From Marinifilum caeruleilacunae (GTDB lineage Bacteria; Bacteroidota; Bacteroidia; Bacteroidales; Marinifilaceae): a stretch of DNA of 64,000 bases. The notes beneath the pieces were generated by a model, which saw only the letters and a program-made list of their open reading frames with translations, was not told the origin of the DNA and made no database searches. The translations under genes and the position numbers were made by a program. Positions 1 through 45,815 of the stretch are shown here, in pieces; position 1 is the stretch's first letter; the number at the start of each line of letters is the position of its first letter. Location: positions 1-64,000 of the forward strand of contig NZ_RZNH01000009.1 of NCBI RefSeq assembly GCF_013141825.1, in the 5' to 3' direction.

Positions 1-88
1 GTGGAGCCTTAATTTCAGAAATGACATCTTTGTTTTGTGTACTACAACTAATAAATAAGACTGTTAGAACAATAAGGTAGAATTTCAT
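1..88 (-). CDS. Lipoprotein, 5' fragment (runs off window)
   Basis: Reading the minus strand from the ATG at 88 gives an open frame to the window edge: a lysine, a hydrophobic stretch, then a lipobox-like LFISC followed by STQNKD. This is the start of an SPII lipoprotein, probably in the outer membrane or periplasm. Only 29 residues are visible, so the family cannot be named. It lies 115 bp downstream of the 204-749 gene on the same strand; no clear attC-like palindrome separates them. Confidence 0.6.
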   Translation of the reverse strand, partial: MKFYLIVLTVLFISCSTQNKDVISEIKAP

Positions 89-203
89 ATGATTATTTAA
101 TTGTTTCCGCATAATTCTTCAGTGGTGCTGGTTTAATGCAAAACATCATTATTGATAAAATTTGTAGGCATGTTTCCATATTAGAAGAAAACCATTCCTT
201 CTT

Positions 204-749
204 TTAATCAATCACGTGTTTCGTTACAAAGGATTTACCTCCAATAAACAATTCGAAATTCGTTCTTTTTACATCCATCAAGTCTGTAGTGATTTGTGAT
301 TTAAACTCATAGTCGATATTGTATATGCGTGTTAATTGATCTAAAACTTCCTTCTTTGGCGATAGTACTTTATACCTTTGGTTATAGAAATTTATCCCTC
401 CAATCCCTTTCCCAAGAAGCACCAGTCCTGCAACAAAAATGATGATTGTTATGGTATGAAAAATAATGGCTTCGGGTAAAATTGTTCCGATAAAGTAGGA
501 GAGGTAAATCACAGCAATTCCGATTATTAGATAGAAAACTAAATTTAAAATTGATTGCCTTTTTACATGTTTTAAATCTTCACACTCCAAATTGATTTCA
601 ACCAGTTTCTCTGCCAATTTCTGTTCAAGGCTAATATTTGAGCATTGTTTTTGAAATGAAGGCTTCTGCTTAGTTAAACCGCATATTATTCCACTTTTAA
701 AGTCGAAAGCCTGCAAATCGCATAATTCACAATGATTGGTTTTTTTCAT
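204..749 (-). CDS. Zinc-ribbon-like membrane protein, unknown function
   Basis: 181 residues. The N-terminus has cysteines at 7, 10, 23 and 36, a spacing that suggests a small metal-binding ribbon. A short helical linker follows, then two hydrophobic segments at about 68-88 and 95-115, then a soluble C-terminal part. It is likely an inner-membrane protein with a cytoplasmic metal-binding head. I do not recognise the family. About 50-120 bp upstream lies a promoter-like element shared with three genes at 55-58 kb, which suggests common regulation with those chromosomal genes rather than cassette expression. Confidence 0.7.
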   Translation of the reverse strand: MKKTNHCELCDLQAFDFKSGIICGLTKQKPSFQKQCSNISLEQKLAEKLVEINLECEDLKHVKRQSILNLVFYLIIGIAVIYLSYFIGTILPEAIIFHTITIIIFVAGLVLLGKGIGGINFYNQRYKVLSPKKEVLDQLTRIYNIDYEFKSQITTDLMDVKRTNFELFIGGKSFVTKHVID

Positions 750-799
750 ATTTATTAATCCTTTTTTATCATCGCATAATAGCTTCCTAAAATCTAGGC

Positions 800-868
800 C
801 AACTAAATTTACATATTATTTAATCACAGAAGCCAATGTGCCAAAAATTAAGAACTGGTTTAAATAGG
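800..868 (-). promoter_or_regulatory. Shared upstream element, copy 1
   Basis: On the minus strand this reads CCTATTTAAACCAGTTCTTA, then about 25 variable bases, then AATAATATGTAAATTTAG. The same layout occurs at 56281-56350, 57274-57343 and 58109-58180, each about 35-60 bp upstream of a minus-strand start codon. The distal block TAAATTTA resembles the Bacteroidota -7 box TAnnTTTG. The proximal block may be an activator site (inference). Confidence 0.5.
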
Positions 869-880
869 AGGGGGTCGTTT

Positions 881-912
881 TACCACGCTAGAGGATTCGT
901 GCGGCAGCGGAG
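881..912. repeat. REP hairpin copy 1
   Basis: TACCACGCTAGAGGATTCGT followed by GCGGCAGCGG. This is a variant of the dispersed hairpin CCACACGAAAGGATTCGTGTGG with a G-rich tail. It sits just downstream of the 918-1262 gene, where the end of the cassette would be expected. Confidence 0.7.
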
Positions 913-917
913 GTATT

Positions 918-1262
918 TTATTCTTTTTCTATTAGCCCATATTCTTCAATAGCATCATTCCAAATATGTTCTTTGTTTATTCTAATTACTTTTTTTACCA
1001 ATGTTGAAATAGTTTCTTGATTCAGATTTTCTTTGTTCATTTCTTCAATGAATAATGATGATTCTTTTCTGTCAAGAAATTCTGCTTTTTCATCCAGAGT
1101 ACAGCATCCATAACCATCAAAAGATATTCGTGCTAAAGAAATACGATTGTCAGTTGATACGTTAAAATCCAGGAACACGCAACTATCAAGACAGCCTAAA
1201 TAATAGTCAGCCTTTCTAGTCTCGGGCATCGTTGTTTTGAAAAATTCAAAGTTTTGATTCAT
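918..1262 (-). CDS. Hypothetical protein, cysteine-containing, 114 aa
   Basis: A small soluble protein without a signal peptide or membrane segment. Two cysteine pairs stand out (GCLDSC near residue 25 and GYGCC near residue 53), and the C-terminal half is helical and charged. I cannot name a family. Size and composition resemble orphan immunity-type proteins, but that is only an impression. It overlaps the preceding gene by an ATGA junction, so the two are translated together and form one cassette-like unit. The cassette start at 1517 reads GTTAGGTGTAATGAC; no matching end is seen, and a REP hairpin lies at that position. Confidence 0.6.
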   Translation of the reverse strand: MNQNFEFFKTTMPETRKADYYLGCLDSCVFLDFNVSTDNRISLARISFDGYGCCTLDEKAEFLDRKESSLFIEEMNKENLNQETISTLVKKVIRINKEHIWNDAIEEYGLIEKE

Positions 1263-1507
1263 ATTTCTATTTCAATTGTATCATTAGATGAGTTAGTTAA
1301 TTTGTTCACTTCATACTTTACTTTTTTAGAAGTCAATTTGTAGTCCATCTTGATATATTCCTCAATATCTTTTAGCGATTCGAAATCAAGAGATGCCATA
1401 TACTCTTCATACTCGTCTTGGATTTCTCTCCAGTCAGAGAATTGCTTTCTGCTTAAAAGCATCTTGTCATTTCTTAAAAATATGAGATTGTATTGCTTCA
1501 TTGTCAT
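1259..1507 (-). CDS. Hypothetical protein, 82 aa, first gene of two-gene cassette
   Basis: A short acidic, soluble protein with a central helical region and no recognisable motif. The first two possible starts are ATG codons six bases apart (MTMKQ). Either follows the attC-like boundary GTTAGGTGTA within three to nine bases, so there is almost no leader. Its stop overlaps the start of the 918-1262 gene by four bases, which implies translational coupling. A plus-strand ORF in the same place is only a shadow. Function unknown. Confidence 0.6.
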   Translation of the reverse strand: MTMKQYNLIFLRNDKMLLSRKQFSDWREIQDEYEEYMASLDFESLKDIEEYIKMDYKLTSKKVKYEVNKLTNSSNDTIEIEI

Positions 1508-1510
1508 TAC

Positions 1511-1640
1511 ACCTAACGGTGAGTATATGCAAAGTAGGTGATTGTATGCTTCATACTTTTCAAACCGTTACAATTTTAAAGCGGGTTATAACACTTTAAT
1601 TTACTACTATCATGCCTATTTTGTATATACATTGTTGTGC
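1511..1640 (-). repeat. attC-like site, 130 bp
   Basis: The outer boxes are ACCTAAC (plus strand, 1511-1517) and GTTGTGC (1634-1640). The inner arms GTATATGCAAAGTAGG and CCTATTTTGTATATAC pair imperfectly. The outer boxes do not match each other: each matches the far end of its own cassette. GTTGTGCCCC at the right matches the start GTTGTGACCC of the 1645-2451 unit. Confidence 0.75.
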
Positions 1641-1644
1641 CCCG

Positions 1645-2451
1645 TTATTCATTCTTCATCCAACCTATTCCATCAATCACCTTTAATTCTGTCAATTCAA
1701 TTAATTTTGGAATTCGATAAAAATTGTATGCCCAAATTTGTCCTAAATTATCTGTTATATCAATACCACCTTTTTTATACTTCTCTCCATTTTTAAATTC
1801 AATCTCAACATTCCAATAAACATGAGCAGTTGAAAAATTACCAAATTTTTTATCAATGAATTCAAAATCAAGCAATCTAACCATATCTTGAACATATTTA
1901 AAAGTGCTTTCCGCAACTTTACCTTTATAATCAGTCATTTTGTGACTATATGTACCAGAAGAGGTTTCAACAACACCCAAATCTTTTCTAACATAGAAGT
2001 CAAGATCATCATTAATAGTGAATGCTTCCTCAGGATACCCTCCTTCAACAATGCTTTTTTTGAATGTTATGCTTTTTAAAAATAATGTCGAATCATATAA
2101 TTGATTTCGATTATAGAGTACATATTCCCGTTTAAAGACTGGTATGGAATCTGATCTGGTATCTATAAGTTTTATTGAGTCCTTATTCATGAATTTAACA
2201 AATAGACTTGTCTCATCCCATCCTTTAAAATCATATACCTTTAAGGTGTCATCATGAAATTTATATTTGAATTTATTTTTATCAATTGATTTTATCAATG
2301 GGGTAAAGGTCAGAGAATCATTGTCAATTTGAAATATATACATTGATTCTTTTTCTATAAACTCTGCATTCAATGGAATTTCTATTCGATTCTCTTTACA
2401 TCCACAAAGAATCAAAATCAATAATATCCATATGTATGCTAGTTCTCTCAT
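1645..2451 (-). CDS. Cassette lipoprotein, 268 aa, unknown function
   Basis: The N-terminus is a lipoprotein signal with the lipobox LILCGC (Cys at about 18), then a mostly beta, acidic exported domain rich in D, K and F. Near residue 160 there is a SGTYSHK stretch and the C-terminus ends GIGWMKNE. I recognise no family. The gene fills a single cassette: start side GTTGTGACCC then A, end side GTTGTGCCCC then G, i.e. a near-perfect private repeat with the position-11 mismatch. The start codon lies 16 bp inside the boundary. Confidence 0.7.
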   Translation of the reverse strand: MRELAYIWILLILILCGCKENRIEIPLNAEFIEKESMYIFQIDNDSLTFTPLIKSIDKNKFKYKFHDDTLKVYDFKGWDETSLFVKFMNKDSIKLIDTRSDSIPVFKREYVLYNRNQLYDSTLFLKSITFKKSIVEGGYPEEAFTINDDLDFYVRKDLGVVETSSGTYSHKMTDYKGKVAESTFKYVQDMVRLLDFEFIDKKFGNFSTAHVYWNVEIEFKNGEKYKKGGIDITDNLGQIWAYNFYRIPKLIELTELKVIDGIGWMKNE

Positions 2452-2460
2452 TTTTATGGG

Positions 2461-2623
2461 TCACAACGCTTATGCTAATATTTAAGAGCTCCAGATAGCT
2501 ATCGAGATTAAAACTACCGCCTTATCAAAATCGTATGGCGCTTATTTTTTTTGCTACATCATCAAGTTGCGCCTGTCCCGATCCTTCGGGATCACCGCCC
2601 TTAAATTTTAACTTTTGTTGTGT
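2461..2623 (-). repeat. attC-like site, A type, 163 bp
   Basis: Outer boxes TCACAAC (2461) and GTTGTGT (2617-2623). The inner arms include GCTAATATTTAAGAGC and AAATTTTAACTTTTG. Two extra hairpins sit inside the arms: a degenerate GATAGCTATCGAG and CCCGATCCTTCGGGATC. The type sequence of the A family recurs at most sites in the array. Confidence 0.8.
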
Positions 2624-2630
2624 TTAGTTA

Positions 2631-3278
2631 TTAGCGTATTATTTCTTTGTTCAAAAATTTACCGTTGCTATCGTATGTTTTTATTATTGTTTTTCTTTCA
2701 CGATTATCCCAAGTTTCATATTCAAACAACTCACCAGCTTGGTCATAATATTCAACTCTCCTCTGAAGGTTCATACCTTTCAGATAGAATGTTTTTGTTT
2801 CTAAAGTACCATCTTCTCTGTATTGACTAATGTAATCTGGTTTACCTGAATTAAAATAACCTTCCACTCTTTTTGCACCATTTGAATAATAGTCAGTTTC
2901 ATAACCTTCGCAAGGTTTATCACATTTATAGTAATTCCAGAAAGATGAATGCAAAGCTCTTTCTGTAACAAACCTAATTGTCGAAACATTTAAAGTATCA
3001 ATAAGCTTGTCTTTTTTTTTAATATGAAGAATAGATGTAAAATAATAACTTAAATCGCCCGGAGTAAGATATCCACCAACCAAATATTTGCCTATTGTGT
3101 CAACTATTACCTTATTATTTTTAGAATAGAAGGTTTTGTTTTTTTCAATATCAAACAAGTCAAATTGTACCTGAGCAATTGTATCTGCACAAGTGTCGTA
3201 GAAAAAAAGTTCTACTTCGATTTGTGCAGTTGCTTTCTGCACAAATAAAATGGTTAACATAATGAGTAGTTTCTTCAT
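2631..3278 (-). CDS. Secreted protein with MORN-like (YwqK-type) repeats
   Basis: 215 residues with a cleavable signal peptide (ends near TAQIEVE). The C-terminal third has repeated Y-x-[N/D/E]-G motifs (YYSNGAKRVEG, YREDGTLETK, YDSNGKFLN), which are MORN-like repeats as in YwqK antitoxin-type proteins (family knowledge). Cysteines near residues 30, 119 and 123 may bond. It is probably periplasmic or surface exposed. It forms a single-gene cassette with matching ends GTTGTGTTTA-A-TTA and GTTGTGTTTA-G-TTA. The start codon follows the boundary by 12 bases. The precise function is unknown. Confidence 0.75.
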   Translation of the reverse strand: MKKLLIMLTILFVQKATAQIEVELFFYDTCADTIAQVQFDLFDIEKNKTFYSKNNKVIVDTIGKYLVGGYLTPGDLSYYFTSILHIKKKDKLIDTLNVSTIRFVTERALHSSFWNYYKCDKPCEGYETDYYSNGAKRVEGYFNSGKPDYISQYREDGTLETKTFYLKGMNLQRRVEYYDQAGELFEYETWDNRERKTIIKTYDSNGKFLNKEIIR

Positions 3279-3286
3279 TTAATTAA

Positions 3287-3416
3287 ACACAACGGTTTTG
3301 CTAAAATTTGAGGGCGATGTACAACCGCCGTCTTATCAAGTACCGCTTTCGTTTATTGTTTTAGTTACTTTATCTGGTTGAGCGTCACCGCTCATTAATT
3401 TTAACTTTTGTTAGGT
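3287..3416 (-). repeat. attC-like site, A type, 130 bp
   Basis: Outer boxes ACACAAC (3287-3293) and GTTAGGT (3410-3416), which do not pair with each other. The left arm GCTAAAATTTGAGGGCG pairs with the right arm TTAATTTTAAC and GCG blocks. An 8-base left spacer and 6-base right spacer separate the outer box from the arm, as in attC R and L boxes. Confidence 0.8.
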
Positions 3417-3438
3417 GTTGAGTATTCAAGTTTTCTAC

Positions 3439-3891
3439 CTAATTGTCTCTATAGTAAACAAATTCTTGACTATAGTTTATAGAATCAGATTTGAATATTC
3501 CTTGCTCAAACGCTTTTTTACGAATTTCAGGAAGTTTATCGAACCTTTTTTTTCTGAGTCTATCCGCTTTTCTGAGTGAAATAAAATCATAATGTACACC
3601 ATACATCATTATTATTTCTAACTTTTCACAATTGTCAGCAAATTTTATAGTCATTGGTTCCAGACCTACTAACCAAAACATCAATTGATCAGTTTCTTCT
3701 GGAATAGAAATATTAAATTCTCCATGTAAATAGGTTCTACCTATTTCTACAGTGTCTATACTATAAATTGAAACGCCAGGAAGCAATTCTAAATGTTCAC
3801 ATATTACAGTACCTTTTATGGCTCTTGTTTGTCCGTGAACAGCAGAAGTTAAAAAGATAAAAATTGAAAGTATTAATGTTAGTTTCATCAT
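3439..3891 (-). CDS. Secreted carboxypeptidase-regulatory-like domain protein
   Basis: 150 residues: signal peptide (cleavage near VHGQ), then a beta-sandwich with the signature of a carboxypeptidase D regulatory-like domain (KGTV, LPGVSIYS, GEFNISIP). This fold is common in Bacteroidota periplasmic and outer-membrane proteins, including the N-termini of SusC proteins. The last 45 residues are basic and helical. It stands alone, so it is not a truncated receptor. It is a cassette with ends GTTAGGTGTT-A-AG and GTTAGGTGTT-G-AG. The first Met may be redundant (MMKL). Confidence 0.7.
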   Translation of the reverse strand: MMKLTLILSIFIFLTSAVHGQTRAIKGTVICEHLELLPGVSIYSIDTVEIGRTYLHGEFNISIPEETDQLMFWLVGLEPMTIKFADNCEKLEIIMMYGVHYDFISLRKADRLRKKRFDKLPEIRKKAFEQGIFKSDSINYSQEFVYYRDN

Positions 3892-3913
3892 CTTTTGTCT
3901 TTTTTAGCTTAAC

Positions 3914-4042
3914 ACCTAACGGTCTTGCTAAAATTGGAGGGCGATTTACAACTACCACCTAATCAAAACTGTTTATGTTTATTGTTTTAGTTACATTATC
4001 TGGTTGAGCGTTGCAGCCCTTAAATTTTAACTTTTGTTGGAG
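3914..4042 (-). repeat. attC-like site, A type, 129 bp
   Basis: Outer boxes ACCTAAC (3914-3920) and GTTGGAG (4036-4042). The inner arms GCTAAAATTGGAGGGCG and GCCCTTAAATTTTAAC pair. The centre contains the conserved TTTATTGTTTTAGTTACATT motif of the A family. Confidence 0.8.
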
Positions 4043-4060
4043 CTTTCTCAGTTTATTTTA

Positions 4061-4459
4061 TCAATATACTAAATACCAGACAATCTCTGTATTAATTATT
4101 TCACCATTTGAATCAAAGAAAAAACTAATAAGATGGTGAGAACCTTTACTATTAGTTTTGTATTGGAAAGAATAGATTCCTTTTCCAATATTTTCTTTTA
4201 TAATAGAATCTGCTGGTTGTTCAAGCCCTTTATTTAGTTTCTCAAAGATTTCATCACAGGGAGTAAGTTCGAAATTTCTTATTCTAATCTGTCTCTTTGA
4301 AAGATCAAGACTATCTTGAACAGTCTGCATGAAATTTTCAGCTTCGGACTTAGCTTTTTTTATAACTGACTTATTAGGAAATACAATGTCACCCATAGTT
4401 TGACTAAACCCAGTTGCTTGAATAAGAACTAAAATTGTTATCATTAGATATTTAGTCAT
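4061..4459 (-). CDS. Secreted hypothetical protein, 132 aa
   Basis: A cleavable signal peptide (TGFSQTMGD, cleavage after about residue 19) precedes a small soluble domain with a charged helical first half and a beta-rich end (GIYSFQYKTN, FFFDSNGEI). One cysteine, so no internal disulfide. I do not recognise it. It is a single-gene cassette: start GTTGGGAGCAATC, end GTTGGAGCTTTC, matching if one base is lost. The ORF begins about 40 bp inside the boundary, a longer leader than its neighbours have. Confidence 0.7.
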   Translation of the reverse strand: MTKYLMITILVLIQATGFSQTMGDIVFPNKSVIKKAKSEAENFMQTVQDSLDLSKRQIRIRNFELTPCDEIFEKLNKGLEQPADSIIKENIGKGIYSFQYKTNSKGSHHLISFFFDSNGEIINTEIVWYLVY

Positions 4460-4492
4460 TGTATGTGTTTTATTTAGTTTGTATTAGATTGC

Positions 4493-4622
4493 TCCCAACG
4501 GTCTTGCTAAAATTTGAGGGCGATTTAAAACTGCCTCCTTATCAAAACCGCATTGCGTTTATTGTTTTTATTGCATTATCTATTTAAGCGTCACCGCCCT
4601 TTAATTTTAACTTTTGTTAGCG
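4493..4622 (-). repeat. attC-like site, A type, 130 bp
   Basis: Outer boxes TCCCAAC (4493-4499) and GTTAGCG (4616-4622), clearly mismatched with each other. Arms GCTAAAATTTGAGGGCG and CGCCCTTTAATTTTAAC pair. The stop codon of the 4617-5414 gene lies inside the right outer box. Confidence 0.8.
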
Positions 4623-5414
4623 AGCGTATTTCTTTCTATTTTCTTCACTAAATACTATTGGTATTGTCCATCCCATTCTATAAACTTTACCATGTCGGTA
4701 ATATACATCCCATTCTGGGATCAAATTAACGACTCTTAACGCCTCTTGATTTAGTAGTTCGTTTTTCAAACCTCTCAAGATGACAATACTATCTGGTTTC
4801 AATTTTTCACCTGATTTTATTGATATAAATACTCTCGCTTTTTTATTTTCTAAATTAGGTACTAGGTTCCAGTTAATGTTTGTATAAATGAAATTTCTAA
4901 GGCTGTCTTGATTTTCAGTAAAAACTGACTTATAAGATTTAGAGTTGTCATATTCTATTTGTTCCGTTAAAATTCCACTAGTGAATGAAAAAGTAAGCTC
5001 CTTTTCATACAAAGAATCATATCCACTATGAAAGTATTGAATTAACTTACCCTTAGGTGCTAATGTGTTTCCTGTAAACCAATGGGCAAAGACTCTCTCT
5101 GTACCAAATTCTTCTTTCAAGTTAAAATATTCGGGATTTTTACTGTAACAACCTTTTTGAATTCTAACAAGAAACAGACTATCATTAGTTAATTCCCATG
5201 TTGCTTGATAACCACGATAACAGGCTGTACTTGTCCATTTAAGTTCGTATTCATTAATCGTTCTCTTCTGTTTTTTCTCAAAGTACTCTTCCAACGGATT
5301 AGCAAATAGTTTCAATGTATCACCTTTATAAATTAAAATATCACCCACCTGTCCAGTTGCATATCCAGACAAGGGCAGAAGTATTATTGTCAATATTTTA
5401 ATTAGTCGTTTCAT
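4617..5414 (-). CDS. Periplasmic protein with TonB C-terminal-like domain
   Basis: 265 residues with a signal peptide ending near YATG. Roughly residues 185-255 look like a TonB C-terminal-like module (ARVFISIKSGEKL, LLNQEALRVVNLIPEW, GKVYRMGWTIPIVF), the domain that energises outer-membrane receptors. There is no N-terminal TM anchor or proline-rich spacer, so this is not an ordinary TonB; a soluble relative is more likely. The cassette ends match over 16 bases apart from position 11 (GTTAGCGAGC-A-TAT and GTTAGCGAGC-G-TAT). The stop codon is inside the attC-like site, as often seen in integron cassettes. Confidence 0.7.
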   Translation of the reverse strand: MKRLIKILTIILLPLSGYATGQVGDILIYKGDTLKLFANPLEEYFEKKQKRTINEYELKWTSTACYRGYQATWELTNDSLFLVRIQKGCYSKNPEYFNLKEEFGTERVFAHWFTGNTLAPKGKLIQYFHSGYDSLYEKELTFSFTSGILTEQIEYDNSKSYKSVFTENQDSLRNFIYTNINWNLVPNLENKKARVFISIKSGEKLKPDSIVILRGLKNELLNQEALRVVNLIPEWDVYYRHGKVYRMGWTIPIVFSEENRKKYAR

Positions 5415-5421
5415 ATATGCT

Positions 5422-5732
5422 CGCTAACGTACGCATAAACACAATGTTGTATTTATTTATCTTATAAGGTGCATTGCACAATACATCCGTATTTGGTATG
5501 TAATGTACAATAAATATAATTTATTTTAGTAAATCTTCTCCTGGGTTTTTAATGGTTTATTACTAATTATTAATTGCTAATTGTTCATTAAAAAACTCTC
5601 CATTTTTCAACTCCCAAATTTCATAAGTCGATGCTCAGTATGGCTTTGTCGATGCTCAATACCTGTTTGTCGATATCGCTTGCCTGTCACCTATCATTCT
5701 CTTAAAATTAGCGATCGCTAAAGAGAAACCGA
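5422..5732. other. Array left-arm edge: half attC-like box, no gene
   Basis: CGCTAAC at 5422-5428 is the start box of the 4617-5414 cassette, but no convincing partner arm is found to its right, so the site is broken here. The remainder is AT-rich with short TTAATTGCTAATTGTTCATT repeats near 5565-5590. It must hold the promoter of the plus-strand operon at 5733. No gene seen. Confidence 0.5.
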
Positions 5733-6293
5733 ATGCGTATGAAAATACAGGAGCAAAATATCATTCAAAAACTAAAAGGGGGAAAGGAATCGGGACTGCG
5801 CGAAATGTTCGATTTGTACTATACCCCTTTGTGTGTATTTGCCCTAAAGTATATCGACGATTTCGATGAAGTGGAAGACCTGGTTCAGGATATTTTTGTT
5901 GGCTTTTGGGAAAAGAAAAGAGTGAACAATCTTACAGGCTCTCTAAAATCTTACCTCTTTACTTCGGTTCGGAACAATGCCCTTAGCAAAATGAAAAAGG
6001 AGAATCGTTTTTGCATTGAAAGCTTAAACGATGAATTCGATTTGCCCGACGAAGAGGCCGATTTCGACAAGGAAGCTTTTGAAATTAGAAAGCAGGGCAT
6101 TTACAAGGAAATTGAAAAGCTGCCCAGCCAAAGCCGTAAGGTTTTCGAACTGATTATCTTTAGCAATTACCCTTACGATATGGTGGCACAAGAGCTCAAC
6201 ATCTCGCTCAATACTGTAAAAACACATTTCTCAAGAGCCTTGAAAAAGCTCCGCTCATCATTGGGAGTAATTATCGCCATTTTACTCAGCTAA
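5733..6293 (+). CDS. ECF sigma-70 factor (FecI-like) of SusC/D operon
   Basis: 186 residues. Sigma region 2 is at about residues 20-95 (FALKYIDDFDEVEDLVQDIF, the core-binding and -10 region); region 4 is near 125-175 with the HTH LNISLNTVKTHFSRALKKLR. This is a Bacteroidota extracytoplasmic function sigma factor, which would direct RNA polymerase to the downstream receptor operon when released by the FecR protein at 6515. A start three codons later (MKIQEQ) is equally possible. The 221 bp gap to fecR holds no gene. Confidence 0.92.
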   Translation: MRMKIQEQNIIQKLKGGKESGLREMFDLYYTPLCVFALKYIDDFDEVEDLVQDIFVGFWEKKRVNNLTGSLKSYLFTSVRNNALSKMKKENRFCIESLNDEFDLPDEEADFDKEAFEIRKQGIYKEIEKLPSQSRKVFELIIFSNYPYDMVAQELNISLNTVKTHFSRALKKLRSSLGVIIAILLS

Positions 6294-6514
6294 TTGTACA
6301 GTTCGCTTACAGACCAGGGGCAGAAAGCCAATCGAAAAAATCAGAAACTTATTAGAATCTTTTACACAGTTCGGCTGAAGGCGTGTGTGTATGAGCTATG
6401 AGCAAGTCAATAAGGTCTAAGTCATTTTTTTGATAAAGATTTGTCACCCATACGCTTTATTCAGATTCCTATTAATGAGAATACACACTTAATAGCGAAT
6501 AAAGCATGTAAAAA
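6294..6514. other. Intergenic, sigma factor to FecR
   Basis: 221 bp with no gene. It probably carries a separate promoter for the FecR/SusC/SusD operon, possibly recognised by the ECF sigma factor itself. I see no unambiguous -33/-7 pair. Confidence 0.3.
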
Positions 6515-7702: not shown

Positions 7703-7703
7703 A

Positions 7704-7729
7704 ACAGGAAGTATCGACCTACTTCCTGT
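7704..7729 (+). promoter_or_regulatory. Perfect 10-bp inverted repeat between FecR and SusC genes
   Basis: ACAGGAAGTA, a six-base loop TCGACC, then TACTTCCTGT. There is no T-tract, so it is probably an mRNA stabiliser, processing site or partial attenuator between the regulator gene and the highly expressed receptor gene rather than a full terminator. Confidence 0.55.
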
Positions 7730-7787
7730 TCGTGATAGTTAACACCATTGTTGGCGCAATGGTATCTATTAACCTCAATCTAAAATT

Positions 7788-38395: not shown

Positions 38396-38467
38396 ATCTG
38401 ATAATTTTAAAATTTGTTTTCATTTTAATGCAAGATAAAAGTTAATGCAGAATGGTTGTTCGGTTGC

Positions 38468-38540
38468 AGCTAACTTGTATATAAACACAACCAATTACGT
38501 TTACACACCCCGCTGCCGCACGAATCCTTTCGTGTGGCTT
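38468..38540 (-). repeat. Boundary: truncated B repeat joined to an inverted REP (copy 10)
   Basis: Box AGCTAAC (38468-38474), only the first 32 bases of B, then a REP in the opposite orientation (CCCCGCTGCCGCACGAATCC then TTTCGTGTGG, 38508-38538). The REP has replaced most of the site, next to the RAYT. Confidence 0.7.
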
Positions 38541-39081: not shown

Positions 39082-39188
39082 AACTAAACAATATCATTCT
39101 AAAATATTAAATATTTAGTTAATTCTAATTTGCTCTGGTTATAATTCTGAAAAAACATTAATTCTTTTGTAGAAGTATTTTTGTAGTC

Positions 39189-39241
39189 TCACCACACGAA
39201 AGGATGGATTTTATCGAACTTCGTTTCGTGCGGCAGCGGGG
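39189..39241. repeat. REP hairpin copy 11, long form
   Basis: TCACCACACGAAAGGATGGA, then TTTTATCGAACTTCGTTTCG, then TGCGGCAGCGGGG. Faces copy 10 across the RAYT. Confidence 0.82.
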
Positions 39242-39261
39242 AAAAGTAGCGGATTTTAAGG

Positions 39262-39353
39262 TGCTAACTTTTCAGTTAAAAACTGACTTTAAATTTATAA
39301 AATTCATTTTCCTTTCAGCACTTAGATCGCTATTTTAATATACAGTGTTATAT
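39262..39353 (-). repeat. attC-like site, 92 bp
   Basis: Outer boxes TGCTAAC (39262-39268) and GTTATAT (39347-39353). The arms are weak. Ends the three-gene sigma factor unit. Confidence 0.55.
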
Positions 39354-39361
39354 GCTGCCTT

Positions 39362-39952
39362 TTAGTCATTCATTTGATTATTCAATTTCTCAAATTCAAC
39401 TAACAGCTTATGAAGTTTTGCGTTCTTTTTCGTAATTACTTTAGGTCTTAAATAATACCAATTTATTGCAAACCAAAGTATGGTTATAGCATAGGTAATT
39501 ATTCCCCCAGTAATTGTCATTTTAGAAACATACTCAAAAATATATAGCCCAATTCCTAAAGAAAGCATTATAAAATAGATACTTAACGTTGTAGCTTGTT
39601 GGTAAACTTGTATTTCTTTTAATTTTATGAGTTGTTGAAGGTATTCTTTACTATTAGGTTCGGTCTTATTCTTAGTAAGTAAAGAAAATTGTTTCTTAAA
39701 AGGTAGTAAAAAAATAATTATAGCTAAAATAGTTAATATAATACCAATCTTAGTAGTTACAAATTCAGGTTGATAATAATACCAAATAAAACCAATAAAT
39801 GTAATGCTTAGTAAAAGTATAATGTTGACTAATATTAGCTTTAAAAAGCTTCTTCTTTTAAGTTTATTTGCTTTAGTATAAAGATTGTTCACTTTTGGAG
39901 TTTCTATGTTTTGTTGATTCCATATTTTTTTAAAATCTATATTAGTTTCCAT
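39362..39952 (-). CDS. Membrane protein, putative anti-sigma partner, 196 aa
   Basis: The soluble N-terminus starts FKKIWNQQNIETP, then come four hydrophobic segments (LKLILVNIILLLSITFIGFI, IGIILTILAIIIFLLPF, LSIYFIMLSLGIGLYIFEYV, GIITYAITILWFAINWYYL). The order in the operon and the length fit a membrane anti-sigma factor that holds the ECF sigma factor encoded just upstream (11 base overlap), but no zinc-binding or FecR motif supports it. Last gene of a three-gene unit ending in an attC-like site. Confidence 0.7.
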   Translation of the reverse strand: METNIDFKKIWNQQNIETPKVNNLYTKANKLKRRSFLKLILVNIILLLSITFIGFIWYYYQPEFVTTKIGIILTILAIIIFLLPFKKQFSLLTKNKTEPNSKEYLQQLIKLKEIQVYQQATTLSIYFIMLSLGIGLYIFEYVSKMTITGGIITYAITILWFAINWYYLRPKVITKKNAKLHKLLVEFEKLNNQMND

Positions 39953-40427
39953 TTTTCTTGAATTTTTGTATTAATTTTTCTTTTATTCTGTGAATCTTAA
40001 CTCTAACGTTTCCTTCAGATAAACCAACAATTTCAGCGATTTCTTTTTGATTTATATCTTCTAGTTCCAATGATATGATGATTCGTTCTACTTCTTGTAG
40101 TTCTGAGATATATTGATATAAAAACTTTATATCCTTCTCTATGTCTGTTTCTTGAATTTCATCCTTAATATCTAATGGTAATTCAGACTTAGAAATTTTG
40201 TTTTCTTTTTGAATTTGACGTAAACAAGTATTGGAGGCAATTCTAAATATCCAAGTTCCTATGGAAGCTTCGTTTCTAAAATTAGGTAGTTGAGTCCACA
40301 CTTTAATAAATGTTTCTTGAGCTAAATCTTTCGCTGCATCTGTATCATTTAAATAACCCATACATAGCCTAAAAACCTTTTGCCAATATGATTTATAAAT
40401 AGTTTCAAAATTCATTATTCTATCCAT
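39942..40427 (-). CDS. ECF sigma-70 factor in a cassette
   Basis: 161 or 157 residues. Region 2: CMGYLNDTDAAKDLAQETFI; linker; region 4: LEDINQKEIAEIVGLSEGNV plus RVKIHRIKEKL. I favour the ATG at 40415, which overlaps the stop of the upstream hydrolase gene in a TAATG junction, over the ATG at 40427. It may control its own unit and other genes in trans. A sigma factor as cassette cargo is unusual. Confidence 0.9.
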   Translation of the reverse strand: MDRIMNFETIYKSYWQKVFRLCMGYLNDTDAAKDLAQETFIKVWTQLPNFRNEASIGTWIFRIASNTCLRQIQKENKISKSELPLDIKDEIQETDIEKDIKFLYQYISELQEVERIIISLELEDINQKEIAEIVGLSEGNVRVKIHRIKEKLIQKFKKNGN

Positions 40428-41344
40428 TTTTTTAACGCATTAATAAATTTAGTTTGTTGGTCAATAAAGAGGTTATGAGAACAGTTGTTTAAATAAATTA
40501 AATTAGTTTTCCCAACTAAATTTACAATGGTTTTTACTTGACTTTCTGAAAAGAGACCATCATCTTTACCATATAATCCAAAAACAGGTGTGCCATTTTT
40601 CACTATTTGTTTTAGGTTATCTTTTAAATCTAAGGTCGTATATTTTTCGTTTTGCCAAAATCCTTTAGGTGCTTCATATGTCATTTTTGAACTATATTTT
40701 ATAAGCAATGAGTCTGTTTTAAATTTTTTATAGATATTCAAGGCTTCAATTGTTGGCTCTTTAGGATAATAAAATCCATTTTGCATTGCGTGCATAAAAC
40801 TGTTGGAGCTATATTGAATAGAACTTGTATCCATTTTTTCAATTATTGAGATATAATTAAGGTTGATACTGTCATTTTTAGATTTGTAAATATCTTTTGA
40901 AGTTGATATTATAGTCTTGAATGTTTCCTGTAAAGAAATAGGGGCACCTACAAGAATAATAGACTGGATTTTATCAGGGTATTTCTCTGCAAATAACGTG
41001 GCTACTATACCTCCGAAACTGTGTCCGATTAAGCTCGATTTTGAAATTCCATATTTCTGATAAACTGCATTTAAGTCTTCAAAAGTTTCTTCAAAAGTGA
41101 ATTTTGTATTAAGGTCTTTACTACGCCCCTCTCCGCGTCTGTCATATACAATTACATAAAAACCATTGTCTGCGAGTTGTTGTGCTGTGGTTGCTTCAAA
41201 ATTCACACAGTTATATCCTGGTCCACCGTGAAGAAAGATTAGCGGCTTGTCACTTGGATTACCATATGCTTTTGAATAAATTGTTTGAGAGTTAACTACA
41301 ATTGTAAATAATGCAAATACGAATACTACTAGTGTTTTTTTCAT
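40415..41344 (-). CDS. Secreted alpha/beta hydrolase, proline iminopeptidase-like
   Basis: 309 residues with a signal peptide (TIVVNSQTIYS). Motifs: oxyanion HGGPGY near residue 40, nucleophile elbow GHSFGG near 108, acid/base D near 260 and CSHNLF near 290. The HGGPG motif is typical of proline iminopeptidases and related esterases. Export suggests a periplasmic substrate. First gene of the three-gene unit (hydrolase, sigma factor, membrane protein). The start boundary is a decayed B repeat (TTTATATGCAATC), and the far end GTTATATGCTGCC still matches. Confidence 0.88.
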   Translation of the reverse strand: MKKTLVVFVFALFTIVVNSQTIYSKAYGNPSDKPLIFLHGGPGYNCVNFEATTAQQLADNGFYVIVYDRRGEGRSKDLNTKFTFEETFEDLNAVYQKYGISKSSLIGHSFGGIVATLFAEKYPDKIQSIILVGAPISLQETFKTIISTSKDIYKSKNDSINLNYISIIEKMDTSSIQYSSNSFMHAMQNGFYYPKEPTIEALNIYKKFKTDSLLIKYSSKMTYEAPKGFWQNEKYTTLDLKDNLKQIVKNGTPVFGLYGKDDGLFSESQVKTIVNLVGKTNLIYLNNCSHNLFIDQQTKFINALKKWIE

Positions 41345-41404
41345 TTTGTTTCCTTTCAGTTTTCATTTAGATACAAGGAATGTCAAAATGTTACATACTA
41401 TTTT

Positions 41405-41700
41405 TTTAGATTGCATATAAATTGTATATAAACGCAACTAGTTACGTTTACATGTCCAATATGGCTGTATAAACGCAATAGCTATTGGTTCGCTTAAATT
41501 TAGTAAAATGATTGTTATTTGTGAGTTGTGGTAAAGGGCAAAAAAGTCCTGCTATAAAAACTTAGTAGTTTCTTGTCGGAGAAGAAGCATGTTTCTCTTC
41601 CGACAAGAAACATGCTTCTCTTTGGAAGAGAAGCCTAATACTTTTTGAAAACTTGTTGTAATAAGTTTTTTGTGCTTGTTGTGGTGGGTTAGGGCTTACC
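41405..41700 (-). repeat. Boundary: B repeat then C repeat (copy 5)
   Basis: The B repeat (AATTGTATATAAACGCAACT at 41411) runs to about 41525; C repeat copy 5 spans about 41538-41690. It joins directly to REP copy 12. Confidence 0.68.
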
Positions 41701-41750
41701 ACACGAAAGGATGGATTTTATCGAAATTCGTTTTGTAGGGTAGAGGTAGG
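41697..41750. repeat. REP hairpin copy 12, long form
   Basis: TACCACACGAAAGGATGGAT, then TTTATCGAAATTCG, then TTTTGTAGGGTAG; the distal stem is decayed. Confidence 0.6.
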
Positions 41751-41913
41751 AATTGCCTGTATTCACAAGACACGAGCGATACACTCACGCCAGCAGCCGA
41801 CACAAACTCGGACTATCCAGAGGTATATGAGCCGTTTTCGATGGTTTATATACTTTGATAGGTGCTTTTGTTTTTAAAATATTTCAAAAAGAAAAGATAA
41901 GAAACTCGTACTA
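41751..41913. other. Intergenic, no feature recognised
   Basis: About 160 bp between REP copy 12 and the end of the serine hydrolase gene. No ORF, no cassette end, no clear terminator. Confidence 0.3.
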
Positions 41914-43155
41914 CTATTCATCCCAATGCAAACTAGCCCCTAACTGCAAGATCTTCCAGCCATATTGTTGTAGCGAAAGATCGTTACAGAACATTACTAA
42001 GCCAAGATCTTGACTTGGGTAAATTTGCATGATGGTAAAAAAGCCAGGACCACCTCCTGTATGCTCAAGTTTTAATTCATCTTTTTCCTTAAATACGTGC
42101 CAACCTATCCCTCTCCTGAAGAAGAACGAGCCCTCATCATTTGCATTTGCAACATGGCTGTCATTCGTCATGAGTTCAATAGATGCTTCTGAAAGGATGC
42201 GATTGCCATCAAGTATGCCTTTGTTCAAATATGCTCTCATAAAGCGCGATGCATCCAAAGTCGAGCCTATTAATGCCGATGGTGGTTCCTGGTTGGTGTA
42301 AACACGTTCCAACCATAAACTATTATTTGAGCTTTCACGAATGAATGAGCCCATCATTATTCGAAGCAAAGGAGCCATGAAAGAAAAAGACGGATGTGAT
42401 CCCGCAGCCTCGACAGTTTGCATATTATTTGTATAAACAAAGTCTGTTTGCGTCATCTCAAGCGGTTCAAGTATGTTTTTCCTAATGTAGTCCCTGTAGT
42501 TTTGTCCGCTTACTTTCTCGATAATAGCACCCAAAACCATATATCCAATATTTGTGTAAGCTGTGTTTTCTCCAGGCTCAAATTCTAATGTTGCATAATC
42601 TGGAAACAACTCTTCTATCAAGGCAGTCTGATCTAAAGCTGGATCTGTATCATGATGTATCCATTTCGCCAATTTCAAACCACTGGCATCAGGTATTCCC
42701 GAGCTATGATTAAGCAAATGAAGTATAGTTATGATATTGCTATTATCAGATGGATAGTTTACCTCAAAGAAGGGTAGATACTTTGAAACGGGATCCTCTA
42801 ACTGCAGTTTACCTTGCTCCTGAAGTTGAAGAATGGCCATAGCTGTTGGTATTTTGGTTATGGACCACCAATGATAAACAGTTTCTGGTGTGGCTTTTAT
42901 GTTTCGTGGCGCATCTGCCCAACCAAAACCTTTGCTGTAAACAATGCTGTCATGCTTTACAATAACAATTGAAAGTCCAGGTGGCGAACCTGAATTTACC
43001 AAGCCCTCAAGATAGCTATCCAGTTCGGTAACCATTTGAACAGATTCTGGTGGTTGTGGTAGTTTTGAATTGCCGACATAAGCCACTATAATGGCAGTTA
43101 AAACGAAAACAACCAGTATCACTTTTCTTCGTTTAGTTAATCTTAAGACTTTCAT
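41914..43155 (-). CDS. Beta-lactamase-family serine hydrolase
   Basis: 413 residues: an N-terminal signal anchor (VILVVFVLTAIIVAYVG) and a class C beta-lactamase/D-Ala-D-Ala peptidase fold. Active-site motifs: SITK near residue 92 (SxxK), YTN near 200 (YxN), HTGG near 375. Members are esterases, peptidases or penicillin-binding proteins; true beta-lactamase action cannot be inferred. The cassette start GTTAGCTGCA-A-TT fits the rule but no matching end is found, so one side has been lost. Confidence 0.9.
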   Translation of the reverse strand: MKVLRLTKRRKVILVVFVLTAIIVAYVGNSKLPQPPESVQMVTELDSYLEGLVNSGSPPGLSIVIVKHDSIVYSKGFGWADAPRNIKATPETVYHWWSITKIPTAMAILQLQEQGKLQLEDPVSKYLPFFEVNYPSDNSNIITILHLLNHSSGIPDASGLKLAKWIHHDTDPALDQTALIEELFPDYATLEFEPGENTAYTNIGYMVLGAIIEKVSGQNYRDYIRKNILEPLEMTQTDFVYTNNMQTVEAAGSHPSFSFMAPLLRIMMGSFIRESSNNSLWLERVYTNQEPPSALIGSTLDASRFMRAYLNKGILDGNRILSEASIELMTNDSHVANANDEGSFFFRRGIGWHVFKEKDELKLEHTGGGPGFFTIMQIYPSQDLGLVMFCNDLSLQQYGWKILQLGASLHWDE

Positions 43156-43183
43156 TTTATATTAGTTTCATTACTTAAATTGC

Positions 43184-43295
43184 AGCTAACTTGTATATAA
43201 ACACCACTAGTTACGTTTACATGACCAATATGGATGTGTAAGAGTAATAGCTATTCGTTTGCTTAAATTTACTAAAATGTTTTTTTATTTGTGGT
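43184..43295 (-). repeat. Cassette boundary: B repeat
   Basis: Box AGCTAAC (43184-43190), then B: TTGTATATAAACACCACTAG, hairpin TTACGTTTACATGACCA/TGGATGTGTAAGAGTAA, TTTGCTTAAATTTACTAAAA. Confidence 0.7.
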
Positions 43296-43339
43296 GGTAA
43301 CGGGAGCAGTTGTGCAGTCAAACTAAACCTCTCATTAAG

Positions 43340-43520
43340 GAGAATTAATGGCATCTTATCCACCTCTTTCGAGAGGCTGTACAATAAGTGTCCAATTTTT
43401 ATTATAATAAGTGTCCGACTTTTATTATAATAAGTGTTCGACTTTTATTATAATAAATTTTCAACTTTTATTATAATAAAATTTTGACTGGGATTGTAAG
43501 TGGTTTTTGTAAGGTGTTTG
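43340..43520. repeat. E repeat copy 3 (AT-rich tandem)
   Basis: Starts TTAATGGCATCTTATCCACC, then TTTCGAGAGGCTGTACAATA and five AT-rich units with GTGTCCGAC/GTGTTCGAC cores. Nearly identical to copy 2, including the flank. Confidence 0.72.
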
Positions 43521-43547
43521 GTGAGGCTTGTTATACAAGCTGTAGAA

Positions 43548-44357
43548 CTAGAAATAAAATGGCAACTTATTGTCGAAGTTTTCCATGATTTGAAACAATT
43601 GATTTCCTAAAATCTCTTTTTGATTTTCTTTTGATTGAGCTTCCAATTCTTGATAGTTTGGCGCATAGCCCGAATAAGCGAAATCGTACTTCCTGCTTTT
43701 CATCTGAAGGATGGATAAAGAGAGTCCAAGAATAAATATGGCCACAGTAAATTTCCTTGCATCAAAATCAACAAACTTTCGAATGAGACTTACACTCAGA
43801 TTGATGACAATCACGGCAAGCACAATCAGGAATATATCGTAATTGTTCCACCACCATATGTCTCCACTTCCCCCAATATACGACTGCGAAGGCCAGAATA
43901 GGTTAATTCCACCCCAGCTCGAAGCCGGTGTTGGCATGTCTTCTATTAAGTGTATTAAGAATCCTAAGAAGAATGCAATTAGCATGTAGCGCTTCTCTTT
44001 CAAATGCTGTAGGAATGGATTGCTTTTTTGTGCTTTGTTCATGGCAGCCAATAAGTAGCTCACATGGCCTAATATTGCGGTCAGTATTACACCGGCAAGT
44101 GCACTATGCATAAATGCGTGGTGAGAATACCAATACTTTGCCGAATAAATTTCTTTTCCACTGGCCGATAAATTAAAAAACCTGCCAATTGTAGTATCAA
44201 AACCGCTCCATAAACTGATTGCATCCAAATCGGGTATTGCACCTGCAAAGCCAGATATCAACACAATTTTCAACCTGCTTTTAAAGCCTGAATTGCTAAA
44301 ACTTGACACAACAGTTCCAACTGCAAGTCCTGATAAAGTATGTGTTAGGATATCCAT
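43548..44357 (-). CDS. YdjM-type membrane metal-dependent hydrolase
   Basis: 269 residues with the family start MDILTHTLSGLAVG, then GAIPDLDAI, HHAFMHSALAGVILTA and GFLIHLIEDMPTPASSWGGI. His and Asp residues in these motifs fit the YdjM/DUF457 family of LexA-binding, inner-membrane-associated putative hydrolases. About five TM segments. It lies 46 bp after the 44404 gene, and the two are presumably co-transcribed. No cassette end downstream: an E repeat sits there. Confidence 0.85.
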   Translation of the reverse strand: MDILTHTLSGLAVGTVVSSFSNSGFKSRLKIVLISGFAGAIPDLDAISLWSGFDTTIGRFFNLSASGKEIYSAKYWYSHHAFMHSALAGVILTAILGHVSYLLAAMNKAQKSNPFLQHLKEKRYMLIAFFLGFLIHLIEDMPTPASSWGGINLFWPSQSYIGGSGDIWWWNNYDIFLIVLAVIVINLSVSLIRKFVDFDARKFTVAIFILGLSLSILQMKSRKYDFAYSGYAPNYQELEAQSKENQKEILGNQLFQIMENFDNKLPFYF

Positions 44358-44403
44358 TCTATTCTCTTTGTGTTTGCTGTGTACTTGTTTTGATGCTTGG
44401 GTA

Positions 44404-44931
44404 TTATTGCTCTTGAATTTTAGTGTTGGAGACAGATTTAAAATAGTTTATAATAAAATTTGGTGTCGTCTTCATAATTATATGCCTAACTCTTCCATAT
44501 GCTTTTGACCTGGTAAATATTTCAAACAATAGCAATGCAATTGCTAAATACCCCAGGGTGGCTATAGCAAACAAAGGTGCAGGAACTCCTCTCGGGTAGT
44601 AGTACAAGCAATATACCTTAATGTCAAGAAATTCAAAAATACACCAATTCAATACATAAATAAGTATAACAGTCAAGCTAGTTTTTATTGCTCTGTTTCC
44701 CCAATTGGAATGCTGTGTGAATAGTCGTTCAATTACGTTTAGGCCAATTAGTATAATAATCAGTCCATAAGTAAAGATCTCTATCTGTAAAGGAATTTTA
44801 TTATTTGTGATTACTTCATTCCAGTTTTTACCAAAACCAAGGTATAGTTCCTGGTTATCAATAGTCATTGTTACAACAAACAAAATATTGAAAAAAAGGA
44901 TAGTTAATAGATATGGCCAAATGAGTCTCAA
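44404..44931 (-). CDS. Polytopic membrane protein, 175 aa
   Basis: Four or so hydrophobic segments (LLTILFFNILFVVTMTI, IFTYGLIIILIGLNVIE, TSLTVILIYVLNWCIFEF, PLFAIATLGYLAIALLLFEI) and a short basic tail. Family not recognised. Upstream gene of the pair with the YdjM-like hydrolase. The cassette start is a degenerate box (CGTGGTAGG). Confidence 0.65.
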   Translation of the reverse strand: MRLIWPYLLTILFFNILFVVTMTIDNQELYLGFGKNWNEVITNNKIPLQIEIFTYGLIIILIGLNVIERLFTQHSNWGNRAIKTSLTVILIYVLNWCIFEFLDIKVYCLYYYPRGVPAPLFAIATLGYLAIALLLFEIFTRSKAYGRVRHIIMKTTPNFIINYFKSVSNTKIQEQ

Positions 44932-44948
44932 ATCGGTTCTTTTTAGTT

Positions 44949-45098
44949 ACCTACCACGGTTTTGCTAAGTTTCTTGGACGAACTATAACTACAGTCTTAT
45001 CAAAACCGCCCAGCGTTTATTGTTTTTATTACATTATCTGTTTGCGACTGTCCCGATCCTTTCACTGCACCGCTCTTTAATTTTAGCTTCTGTTAGCT
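44949..45098 (-). repeat. attC-like site, A type, 150 bp
   Basis: The left box is decayed (CTACCACGG), the right box GTTAGCT intact. Arms GCTAAGTTTCTTGGACG and CTCTTTAATTTTAG. CCCGATCC remains in the right arm but its partner has mutated. Confidence 0.7.
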
Positions 45099-45123
45099 GC
45101 TGGCTGCAAAAGCATTAATTACT

Positions 45124-45687
45124 TTAAATTAAAAGAAACGTCATGATTCCTAGCAAAAGAAAAGGACTAATATTAATAATCCCTTTTACGAATCCAAATT
45201 CCTGAAATTTCATAACTCCTTGAAGCATAATCTTCAACGTCCACACCCATAAGACTAAATAGAATGAACTAAGAATCCAATATGAAATACTTCCAGTCAC
45301 CAGAATATTCCCTGTAAAACCAAAGTATAAAATAACTGGTAGCTTTAAAAGAATAGGTATAGCAGAATAAGCTGCAACAACTCGCATATCAATTATTTTA
45401 CTTTTACCCTTTATTAGTTTTCCAATAGCATACAAAATATAAGTAGTAAGGTATCTACCAATCACTAAACTAAAACCTGCCGAAACTAATATAAATCCGA
45501 GAGCTACAATAATAATTGGATATTCTTTAAAATATTGATGATCCTTAAAAAACAAGTCTATTCCAGAAACCATTCCCACTAGCATAAAAAGTAGATTAGC
45601 ATTAGCTTCTAAATTATCTTCAAACTGATCATCTAGATCATCAAATGTGGTTGAGGTTTTAAAAAGAATGTTTAAGAATGTACGCAT
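45124..45687 (-). CDS. YIP1-family-like membrane protein, 187 aa
   Basis: Five or six TM helices; FDDLDDQFEDNLEANANLLF at the start, then LVSAGFSLVIGRYLTTYILY and VAAYSAIPILLKLPVILYF are typical of bacterial YIP1-family proteins (unknown function). It is the first (most 5') clear cassette of the array: ends GTTAGCTGC-AA-GC and GTTAGCTGC-TG-GC. Upstream are B and REP repeats and then ordinary chromosome. Confidence 0.72.
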   Translation of the reverse strand: MRTFLNILFKTSTTFDDLDDQFEDNLEANANLLFMLVGMVSGIDLFFKDHQYFKEYPIIIVALGFILVSAGFSLVIGRYLTTYILYAIGKLIKGKSKIIDMRVVAAYSAIPILLKLPVILYFGFTGNILVTGSISYWILSSFYLVLWVWTLKIMLQGVMKFQEFGFVKGIINISPFLLLGIMTFLLI

Positions 45688-45713
45688 GTTATTGTTTTAG
45701 TATCCTTGCTTGC

Positions 45714-45815
45714 AGCTAACTTGTTTATAAACGAAAATAGTTACGAATACATGGCCACTATAAACGTAATAGCTATAAGTTTGCTTAAATTTAGTAAAAT
45801 GTTTTTTATTGTTGG
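45714..45815 (-). repeat. Cassette boundary: B repeat, right-hand edge of the clear array
   Basis: Box AGCTAAC (45714-45720) followed by a shortened B (TTGTTTATAAACGAAAATAG, then TTTGCTTAAATTTAGTAAAA). Confidence 0.66.

What the first reader, a model, noticed from the sequence alone, without database searches (positions are those of the whole stretch)
1..45720. A large integrase-less (CALIN-like) cassette array in a Bacteroidota chromosome
Sequence shows: about 30 consecutive minus-strand genes or small gene groups, most separated by 80-250 bp imperfect palindromes with the attC plan (RYYYAAC, unpaired spacer, inner arm, variable middle, inner arm, spacer, GTTRRRY). ORFs start 5-60 bp after one box and often stop inside the next site, as in integron cassettes. 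Knowledge: such arrays without intI are called CALIN. Inference: an integron-type recombinase, now absent or acting in trans, built it. I do not recognise this attC family, and big arrays are not a commonly described feature of this phylum.
Basis: partly seen in the sequence, partly recalled or inferred. Interest (0 to 1): 0.95.

Follow-up and report, generated by a model that had tools for sequence, protein, structure and literature searches.

The report
Integron arrays with a non-IntI integrase
The window holds a real gene-cassette array of the integron kind in a marine Bacteroidota bacterium, and related genomes suggest that such arrays are built by a different, apparently overlooked integrase family found in many members of this phylum.

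Summary
On the minus strand, from about 47.1 kb down to 1, 19 attC-type sites separate mostly orphan genes. Recombination signature: each cassette's 5' head is complementary to R'' at its own 3' end (16 of 21 tested sites match at 5 or more of 6 variable positions; adjacent heads 0 of 20; 0 of 100,000 permutations). No integrase lies in the array, so CALIN-like holds for the window. The wider inference changes. The genome (Marinifilum, Marinifilaceae) has a second array headed by a tyrosine recombinase without the IntI insert, with an attI about 95 nt after its stop codon and seven exact cassette links. No IntI above cut-off in 57 family genomes. Relatives of the recombinase occur in 114 of 395 sampled Bacteroidota genomes; in 32 chosen testable loci, arrays of two or more exact links start at its 3' end in 22, against 0-4 in controls. 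Fourteen ~100-nt elements in the window resemble this system's attI and stand where attC should be. Most likely: a Bacteroidota lineage of integrons that IntI-based searches miss. That this recombinase catalyses the reaction is inferred, not shown.

The parts
1..47065 (-). cassette array without an integrase (runs off the contig at position 1; interrupted by 5733-14139)
44949..45100 (-). attC, class A
   Evidence: R1 model; head 45720/tail 45100 exact
37364..37499 (-). attC, other type
29610..29806 (-). attC, other type
28935..29016 (-). attC, class A, short
   Evidence: E 0.013; tail match only 4/6
27768..27911 (-). attC, class A, R'' degenerate
   Evidence: no head/tail match
27200..27236 (-). 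5' half of a class A attC, followed by REP and element B
   Evidence: head 27776/tail 27230
25307..25440 (-). attC, class A, degenerate
   Evidence: E 0.0016; tail match 3/6
23671..23803 (-). attC, other type
   Evidence: tail match 3/6
23080..23134 (-). 5' half of a class A attC (3' half missing)
   Evidence: head 23679/tail 23128 exact
20766..20900 (-). attC, other type
19866..20002 (-). attC, other type
18812..18951 (-). attC, other type
18128..18272 (-). attC, class A
   Evidence: exact head/tail
17209..17403 (-). attC, other type; similar site in Labilibaculum (L080)
   Evidence: exact head/tail
16428..16593 (-). attC, class A
   Evidence: exact head/tail
14928..15064 (-). attC, other type
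   Evidence: exact head/tail 15585/15064
4491..4624 (-). attC, class A
   Evidence: head at 5428 matches tail 6/6
3912..4044 (-). attC, class A
   Evidence: tail match 2/6, or one deletion
3285..3418 (-). attC, class A
   Evidence: exact head/tail
2459..2625 (-). attC, class A
   Evidence: exact head/tail
1509..1642 (-). attC, other type
47060..47155 (-). element B (attI-like), first in the array
45988..46041 (-). element B, truncated
45720..45810 (-). element B
43190..43292 (-). element B
41422..41522 (-). element B
38474..38505 (-). element B, 3' end only, next to a REP and RAYT remnant
36682..36736 (-). element B, truncated
33001..33102 (-). element B; R'' of an older attC upstream at 33246
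30329..30430 (-). element B (query copy)
27040..27140 (-). element B
25888..25987 (-). element B
24276..24377 (-). element B
21817..21918 (-). element B
15585..15685 (-). element B
5733..14139 (+). not part of the array: ECF sigma factor, FecR, 1177-aa protein (SusC-sized, not scanned), SusD, weak M43 peptidase match

Best explanation
The window is an integrase-less array of a Bacteroidota integron system whose integrase is not IntI. In the intact form a tyrosine recombinase (open frames mostly about 355-410 aa; in the Marinifilaceae with an extra N-terminal domain rich in W-S-Q-T-K-K-C-W-W; no IntI insert) is followed on the same strand by an attI, usually 20-143 nt after its stop codon (inverted repeat, AT-rich stretch, GTT), and then by cassettes each ending in an attC. 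Shown: the array; cassette boundaries at GTT and head/tail complementarity; the recombinase-attI-array order in many genomes; lack of the IntI insert; no above-cut-off IntI in the family. Inferred: that this recombinase does the strand exchange at G^TT, with attC acting as a folded single strand as in known integrons; that the window's platform lost its integrase; and that B elements are attI copies which replaced the 3' half of attC sites, so that several cassette groups carry an attI-like site of their own.
For: Own genome: recombinase on C176, contig joined by exact 148-nt overlaps to C184 and C136; attI head GTTGGCAGT has its exact complement 549 nt downstream at an attC, then GTTAGGCTT/AAGCCTAAC, seven exact links and a doubtful eighth. 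Family: chains of two or more links in 7 of 15 loci, up to 17-18 in single-contig G422; upstream controls 0-1 in 14. Phylum/order: 22 of 32 loci with two or more links against 4 (complement), 0 (reversal), 3 (upstream); 8 of 32 with four or more against 0, 0, 0. Contigs break just 3' of the gene: within 600 nt, 34 of 80 against 6 of 69 at the 5' end, p 2e-6. No IntI above cut-off in 57 family genomes or, among the order genomes, in any listed. IntI insert absent in 18 of 18 aligned rows, present in 4 of 4 IntI. Canonical IntI loci carry such chains on the other (5') side: 8 of 33 against 0 of 47.
Against: No experiment. In 8 of 15 family loci the test found fewer than two links (G002, G003, G005, G403, G425a, G430a, G430b, G438a; G003 and G002 have only 236 and 764 nt of downstream DNA; G438a has a 9/9 match about 6.6 kb on, outside the test's limit), and in 10 of 32 phylum loci. 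Of 21 testable non-IntI relatives in IMG/VR only one (L179) has a downstream chain, so not every relative is an array integrase. The 32 loci were chosen by me for contig length and completeness. The draft has 3.97% contamination. Exact chains in the window itself are short.
Confidence: 0.85

Rival explanations
1. Ordinary CALIN: an IntI that was lost, or acts in trans from elsewhere, built the arrays; the neighbouring recombinase is a bystander.
For: attC plan and G^TT heads are those of IntI systems. True IntI genes exist in the order (6 of 393 genomes).
Against: 0 of 57 family genomes have an IntI above cut-off while 20 of 57 carry class A sites. Arrays begin at the 3' end of the recombinase in 22 of 32 loci. 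In canonical IntI loci the array lies on the other side.
Confidence: 0.08
2. Element B is not an attI copy but an independent small repeat (REP/MITE-like or a mobile promoter) that happens to end at cassette heads.
For: B is conserved over about 100 nt; 14 of 16 matches in the genome lie in the window array; by eye most copies follow a REP or 23-bp repeats.
Against: Its 3' end has the attI layout and matches the G003 attI at 29 of 33 columns (copy 30329) and 27 of 33 (copy 33001); 8 of 8 copies score above all of 30 shuffles against G003, but only 4 of 8 do against the genome's own attI region. CAA|GTT ends 10 of 12 B copies, 4 of 9 family attI and 5 of 24 phylum attI. attC replaced by partial attI is known in class 1 and 2 integrons (PMC12901181, abstract and passages).
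Confidence: 0.3
3. The palindromes are ordinary drifting intergenic DNA or dispersed repeats, and the array is not site-specific.
For: AT-rich sequence, many repeats, no enrichment of RYYYAAC; single-strand folding mostly unremarkable.
Against: Head/tail complementarity within cassettes but not between neighbours; exact chains in other genomes with controls.
Confidence: 0.01

Closest known systems
Integrons with IntI (mobile classes and sedentary chromosomal integrons)
   Same: attI next to the integrase gene; attC with R''-L''...L'-R'; exchange at G^TT as read from head/tail complementarity; short, mostly single-gene cassettes of unknown function.
   Different: Integrase outside IntI (195 bits against a cut-off of 265 for TIGR02249; true IntI 492), without the IntI insert; array at the 3' end of the integrase gene instead of the 5' side.
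CALIN (attC clusters without intI)
   Same: The window array has attC sites and no integrase on its contig.
   Different: A relative array in the same genome is headed by a non-IntI recombinase; 14 attI-like elements lie inside the array.
Delta-attI-type cassettes of class 1 and 2 integrons (PMC12901181; abstract and passages seen)
   Same: The attC at a cassette's end is replaced by part of an attI.
   Different: Fourteen copies in one array, about 100 nt long, mostly preceded by REP or 23-bp repeats; the attI is of the non-IntI system.
XerC/XerD/XerA recombinases
   Same: Same fold family; best solved relatives by sequence are an archaeal XerC-like protein, XerA and IntI4.
   Different: Far below XerC/XerD cut-offs (175/173 bits against 335/330); heads cassette arrays.

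Membership tests
Integron in the strict sense (IntI type) | integrase of the IntI family (TIGR02249 cut-off) | tested here: not met
   0 of 57 family genomes over the cut-off; own recombinase 194.8 bits against 265
Integron in the strict sense (IntI type) | IntI-specific insert in the catalytic domain | tested here: not met
   absent in 18 of 18 aligned rows, present in 4 of 4 IntI
Integron in the wide sense (integrase + attI + cassettes) | attI next to the integrase gene | tested here: met
   first cassette head 20-143 nt after the stop in 24 of 32 loci; own genome
Integron in the wide sense (integrase + attI + cassettes) | cassettes ending in attC, exchanged at G^TT | tested here: met
   (read from sequence, not from a reaction)
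Integron in the wide sense (integrase + attI + cassettes) | attC recombined as a folded single strand | not testable with these tools
   needs a strand-specific recombination assay; folding energies were inconclusive
CALIN | two or more attC sites close together, no integrase nearby | tested here: met
   19 complete sites in the window; no recombinase hit on C191
XerC/XerD | score above the XerC or XerD cut-off | tested here: not met
   175 and 173 bits against 335 and 330

The most novel reading that the evidence does not exclude
Bacteroidota carry their own widespread lineage of integrons. Its integrases lack the insert held to be essential for integron function, use an attI on the 3' side of the gene, and head cassette arrays in many families, on chromosomes and perhaps on plasmids. 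IntI would then be one branch of a wider set of integron integrases, and recombination of attC sites would not need that insert.
Probability: 0.75. Interest if true: 0.95.

Novelty: new variant of a known kind. Interest (0 to 1): 0.92.

Why it matters
Integrons are recognised by IntI and known mostly from Proteobacteria. If a second integrase lineage heads arrays in a large share of Bacteroidota (recombinase in 114 of 395 sampled genomes; arrays checked in 32 loci only), a large cassette pool has been annotated as scattered hypothetical genes. [quoted passage not shown]

Tried and rejected
Counting RYYYAAC boxes gave no enrichment. Rfam found nothing in the window. RNAalifold on class A sites gave 4 pairs; single-strand folding of six sites was mostly unremarkable, one at z -2.5. 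The alignment of other attC types (A2) was too poor for a covariance model; only a class A model was built, so other attC types are undercounted elsewhere. The gene shared by L057 and L063 first looked like a moved cassette; its similarity is not bounded by GTT heads, so it is not counted as transfer. The two Xer genes (C86, C95) were set aside as integrase candidates; C180 and the weaker hits were not examined further. Tree: 13 of 68 rows (short, long-branched or doubtful) were dropped; one clade of the 42 remaining 'array' rows (some with 0 or 1 link) is neither rejected nor shown (p-AU 0.225), and IntI sits next to two of them (L284, L281). PADLOC on 10 window proteins gave nothing better than E 0.0019. 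Five plasmid loci gave 0-1 links. The head/tail test is symmetric between strands, so the plus-strand run is no control. Structure prediction was not run: its stated rule does not cover loci taken with the fetch from genomes.
Full report
What is in the window. The window is G000:C191:1-64000 of a 5.27-Mb draft in 202 contigs. One genus mate is Marinifilum flexuosum: G001:C7 and NZ_RAPQ01000014.1 have the same length, 110,226 nt, and give identical matches. The host is therefore a Marinifilum (Marinifilaceae). From about 47.1 kb to 1 the minus-strand genes are separated by attC-type sites. Of 44 minus-strand array ORFs scanned with Pfam, 28 match no family at E<=0.01; the others include DUF695+RraB, Imm63, a beta-lactamase-fold hydrolase, YdjM, Yip1 and a RAYT remnant. 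The block 5733-14139 is on the plus strand and is not part of the array.

Proof of cassette logic. If cassettes enter as circles cut at G^TT, the first bases of a cassette (GTTxxxxxx, its head) must be complementary to R'' at its own 3' end, not to the next head. One search covered 33 heads for their complements; one search tested 21 sites: own head 102 of 126 positions, adjacent head 47 of 120, none of 100,000 permutations as good. Twelve of the 21 tails were set by the class A arm (8 of 12 at 5/6 or better); nine were mostly guided by the head (8 of 9), which favours them. Five of 21 miss, and most boundaries made by element B were not testable. With exact 9-mers the window has only short chains, as an old, decaying array would.

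Class A sites elsewhere. A covariance model of eight class A sites (R1) finds 26 places in this genome at E<=1, on C191, C159, C136, C181, C184, C187, C193 and C195; the C184-end and C136-start sites are one site in the contig overlap. It finds sites in 5 of 6 genus genomes and in 20 of 57 family genomes at E<=1e-4. A 21-base pattern found seven stretches in Marinifilum, Labilibaculum and Ancylomarina. Between own and other loci the matches are mostly attC-sized; four longer ones exist.

The integrase. No IntI passes the curated cut-off in this genome, the genus (0 of 6) or the family (0 of 57); 6 of 393 order genomes have one (at most five candidates scored per genome). But a tyrosine recombinase scoring 93-126 bits with its best piece occurs in 21 of 57 family genomes. 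In single-contig genomes G422 and G423 it lies just upstream of arrays on the same strand. In this genome it is on C176 (243-1322, minus), 242 nt from the contig end. C176 and C184 overlap by exactly 148 nt, as do C184 and C136. Across the join the first head GTTGGCAGT has its exact complement 549 nt downstream at an attC, followed by GTTAGGCTT/AAGCCTAAC: seven exact links, an eighth doubtful. So the genome has one intact integron besides the integrase-less window array.

Generality. An automatic test looked for chains of exact 9-base head/tail links starting within 300 nt of the stop. In 15 family loci, 7 have two or more links (G422: 18, the last doubtful); upstream controls gave 0-1 in 14. 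A profile of 14 family recombinases (A5) matches 114 of 395 phylum and 142 of 393 order genomes at E<=1e-60. I chose and fetched 40 of these loci; 8 had under 1 kb of downstream DNA and were dropped. Of 32, chains starting within 450 nt: one or more in 29 (complement control 14, reversal 5, upstream 8), two or more in 22 (4, 0, 3), three or more in 13 (1, 0, 0), four or more in 8 (0, 0, 0). A single link is thus weak evidence; longer chains are not. Draft contigs break preferentially just 3' of the gene (34 of 80 against 6 of 69 within 600 nt; the 149 rows listed, whose list was cut). Canonical IntI-like loci from IMG/VR show chains on the 5' side (8 of 33) and none on the 3' side (0 of 47); of 21 testable non-IntI relatives there only L179 has a downstream chain. 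The test is symmetric between strands, so direction rests on gene orientation and attC asymmetry.

Relation to IntI. The recombinases lack the IntI insert (18 of 18 aligned). IntI forms a 100/100 clade on a long stem, nearest to two array-bearing rows; whether the other array rows are one clade is undecided (p-AU 0.225). The best solved relatives by sequence are an archaeal XerC-like protein, XerA and IntI4. The recombinases reach no NCBIfam cut-off in the three tested.

The B elements. Fourteen elements of up to about 100 nt (three of them partial) precede cassette heads in the window, all on the minus strand; the genome has one more on C61 and a partial one on C159. They end in an inverted repeat, then TTATATACAA and GTT, the layout of attI sites after integrase genes; CAA|GTT occurs in 10 of 12 B copies, 4 of 9 family attI and 5 of 24 phylum attI. 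Two copies match the G003 attI at 29 and 27 of 33 columns. By eye, their 5' part reads K-K-H-F-T-K-F-K, like the recombinase C-terminus K-K-D-F-I-K-F-K; this was not tested statistically on its own. Upstream of two copies R'' or the 5' half of an attC survives (27.2 and 33.2 kb). attC thus seems replaced by attI, as in delta-attI cassettes of class 1 and 2 integrons (PMC12901181). How these units spread is unexplained.

Literature. Ten searches of open-access papers listed no report that I recognised as this system. I saw listings, and passages of PMC9024848 (only In0 in Bacteroidetes before; a complete integron in Salinibacter), PMC8618304 (Bacteroidota in a list of phyla), PMC9668308, PMC8352920 (11 taxon models of attC, none for Bacteroidota), PMC8138268 and PMC12901181. 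Most listed papers were not opened, and subscription papers and preprints were not searched, so priority is not established.

Noticed in passing
window 38396-39081 and REP-like hairpins at 910, 15727, 30470, 33142, 35497, 36777, 39239, 45894 (minus) and 38510 (plus): REP-like palindromes and a Y1_Tnp (RAYT) remnant sit in the array, often next to element B; element B at 38474 appears cut by this insertion.
   Followed up: partly
window about 14303-14500, 21927-22125, 24385-24776, 25996-26217, 35280-35466, 41531-41706, 43345-43531: Two families of 23-bp tandem repeats (about CTTCTTGTCGGAAGAGAAACATG, and TTATTATAATAAAAGTCGGACAC) lie between REP and element B or alone. Function unknown.
   Followed up: no
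L142 (IMG/VR), 6 kb 5' of the recombinase: A non-IntI relative has a chain of 6 links on its 5' side, unlike the rest: perhaps a further lineage with the canonical layout.
   Followed up: no
L309, NZ_CP041688.1 (Chryseobacterium sp. SNU WT5 plasmid): Codirectional small genes follow an integrase annotated 'site-specific tyrosine recombinase/integron integrase', with an IS110 transposase and a group II intron maturase among them; as recalled, both kinds can target attC sites. One exact link only.
   Followed up: partly
plasmid collection, Acinetobacter records: Fifty Acinetobacter plasmids match the recombinase; those listed are 51% identical over residues 112-357 (TnpF in one record). No array test was made.
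   Followed up: no
L057:3658-4283 and L063:13284-13908: A 172-aa protein gene (looks GreA-like, not tested) is 96% identical between two genomes, with a class A attC just downstream in only one: class A sites also occur singly beside ordinary genes.
   Followed up: partly
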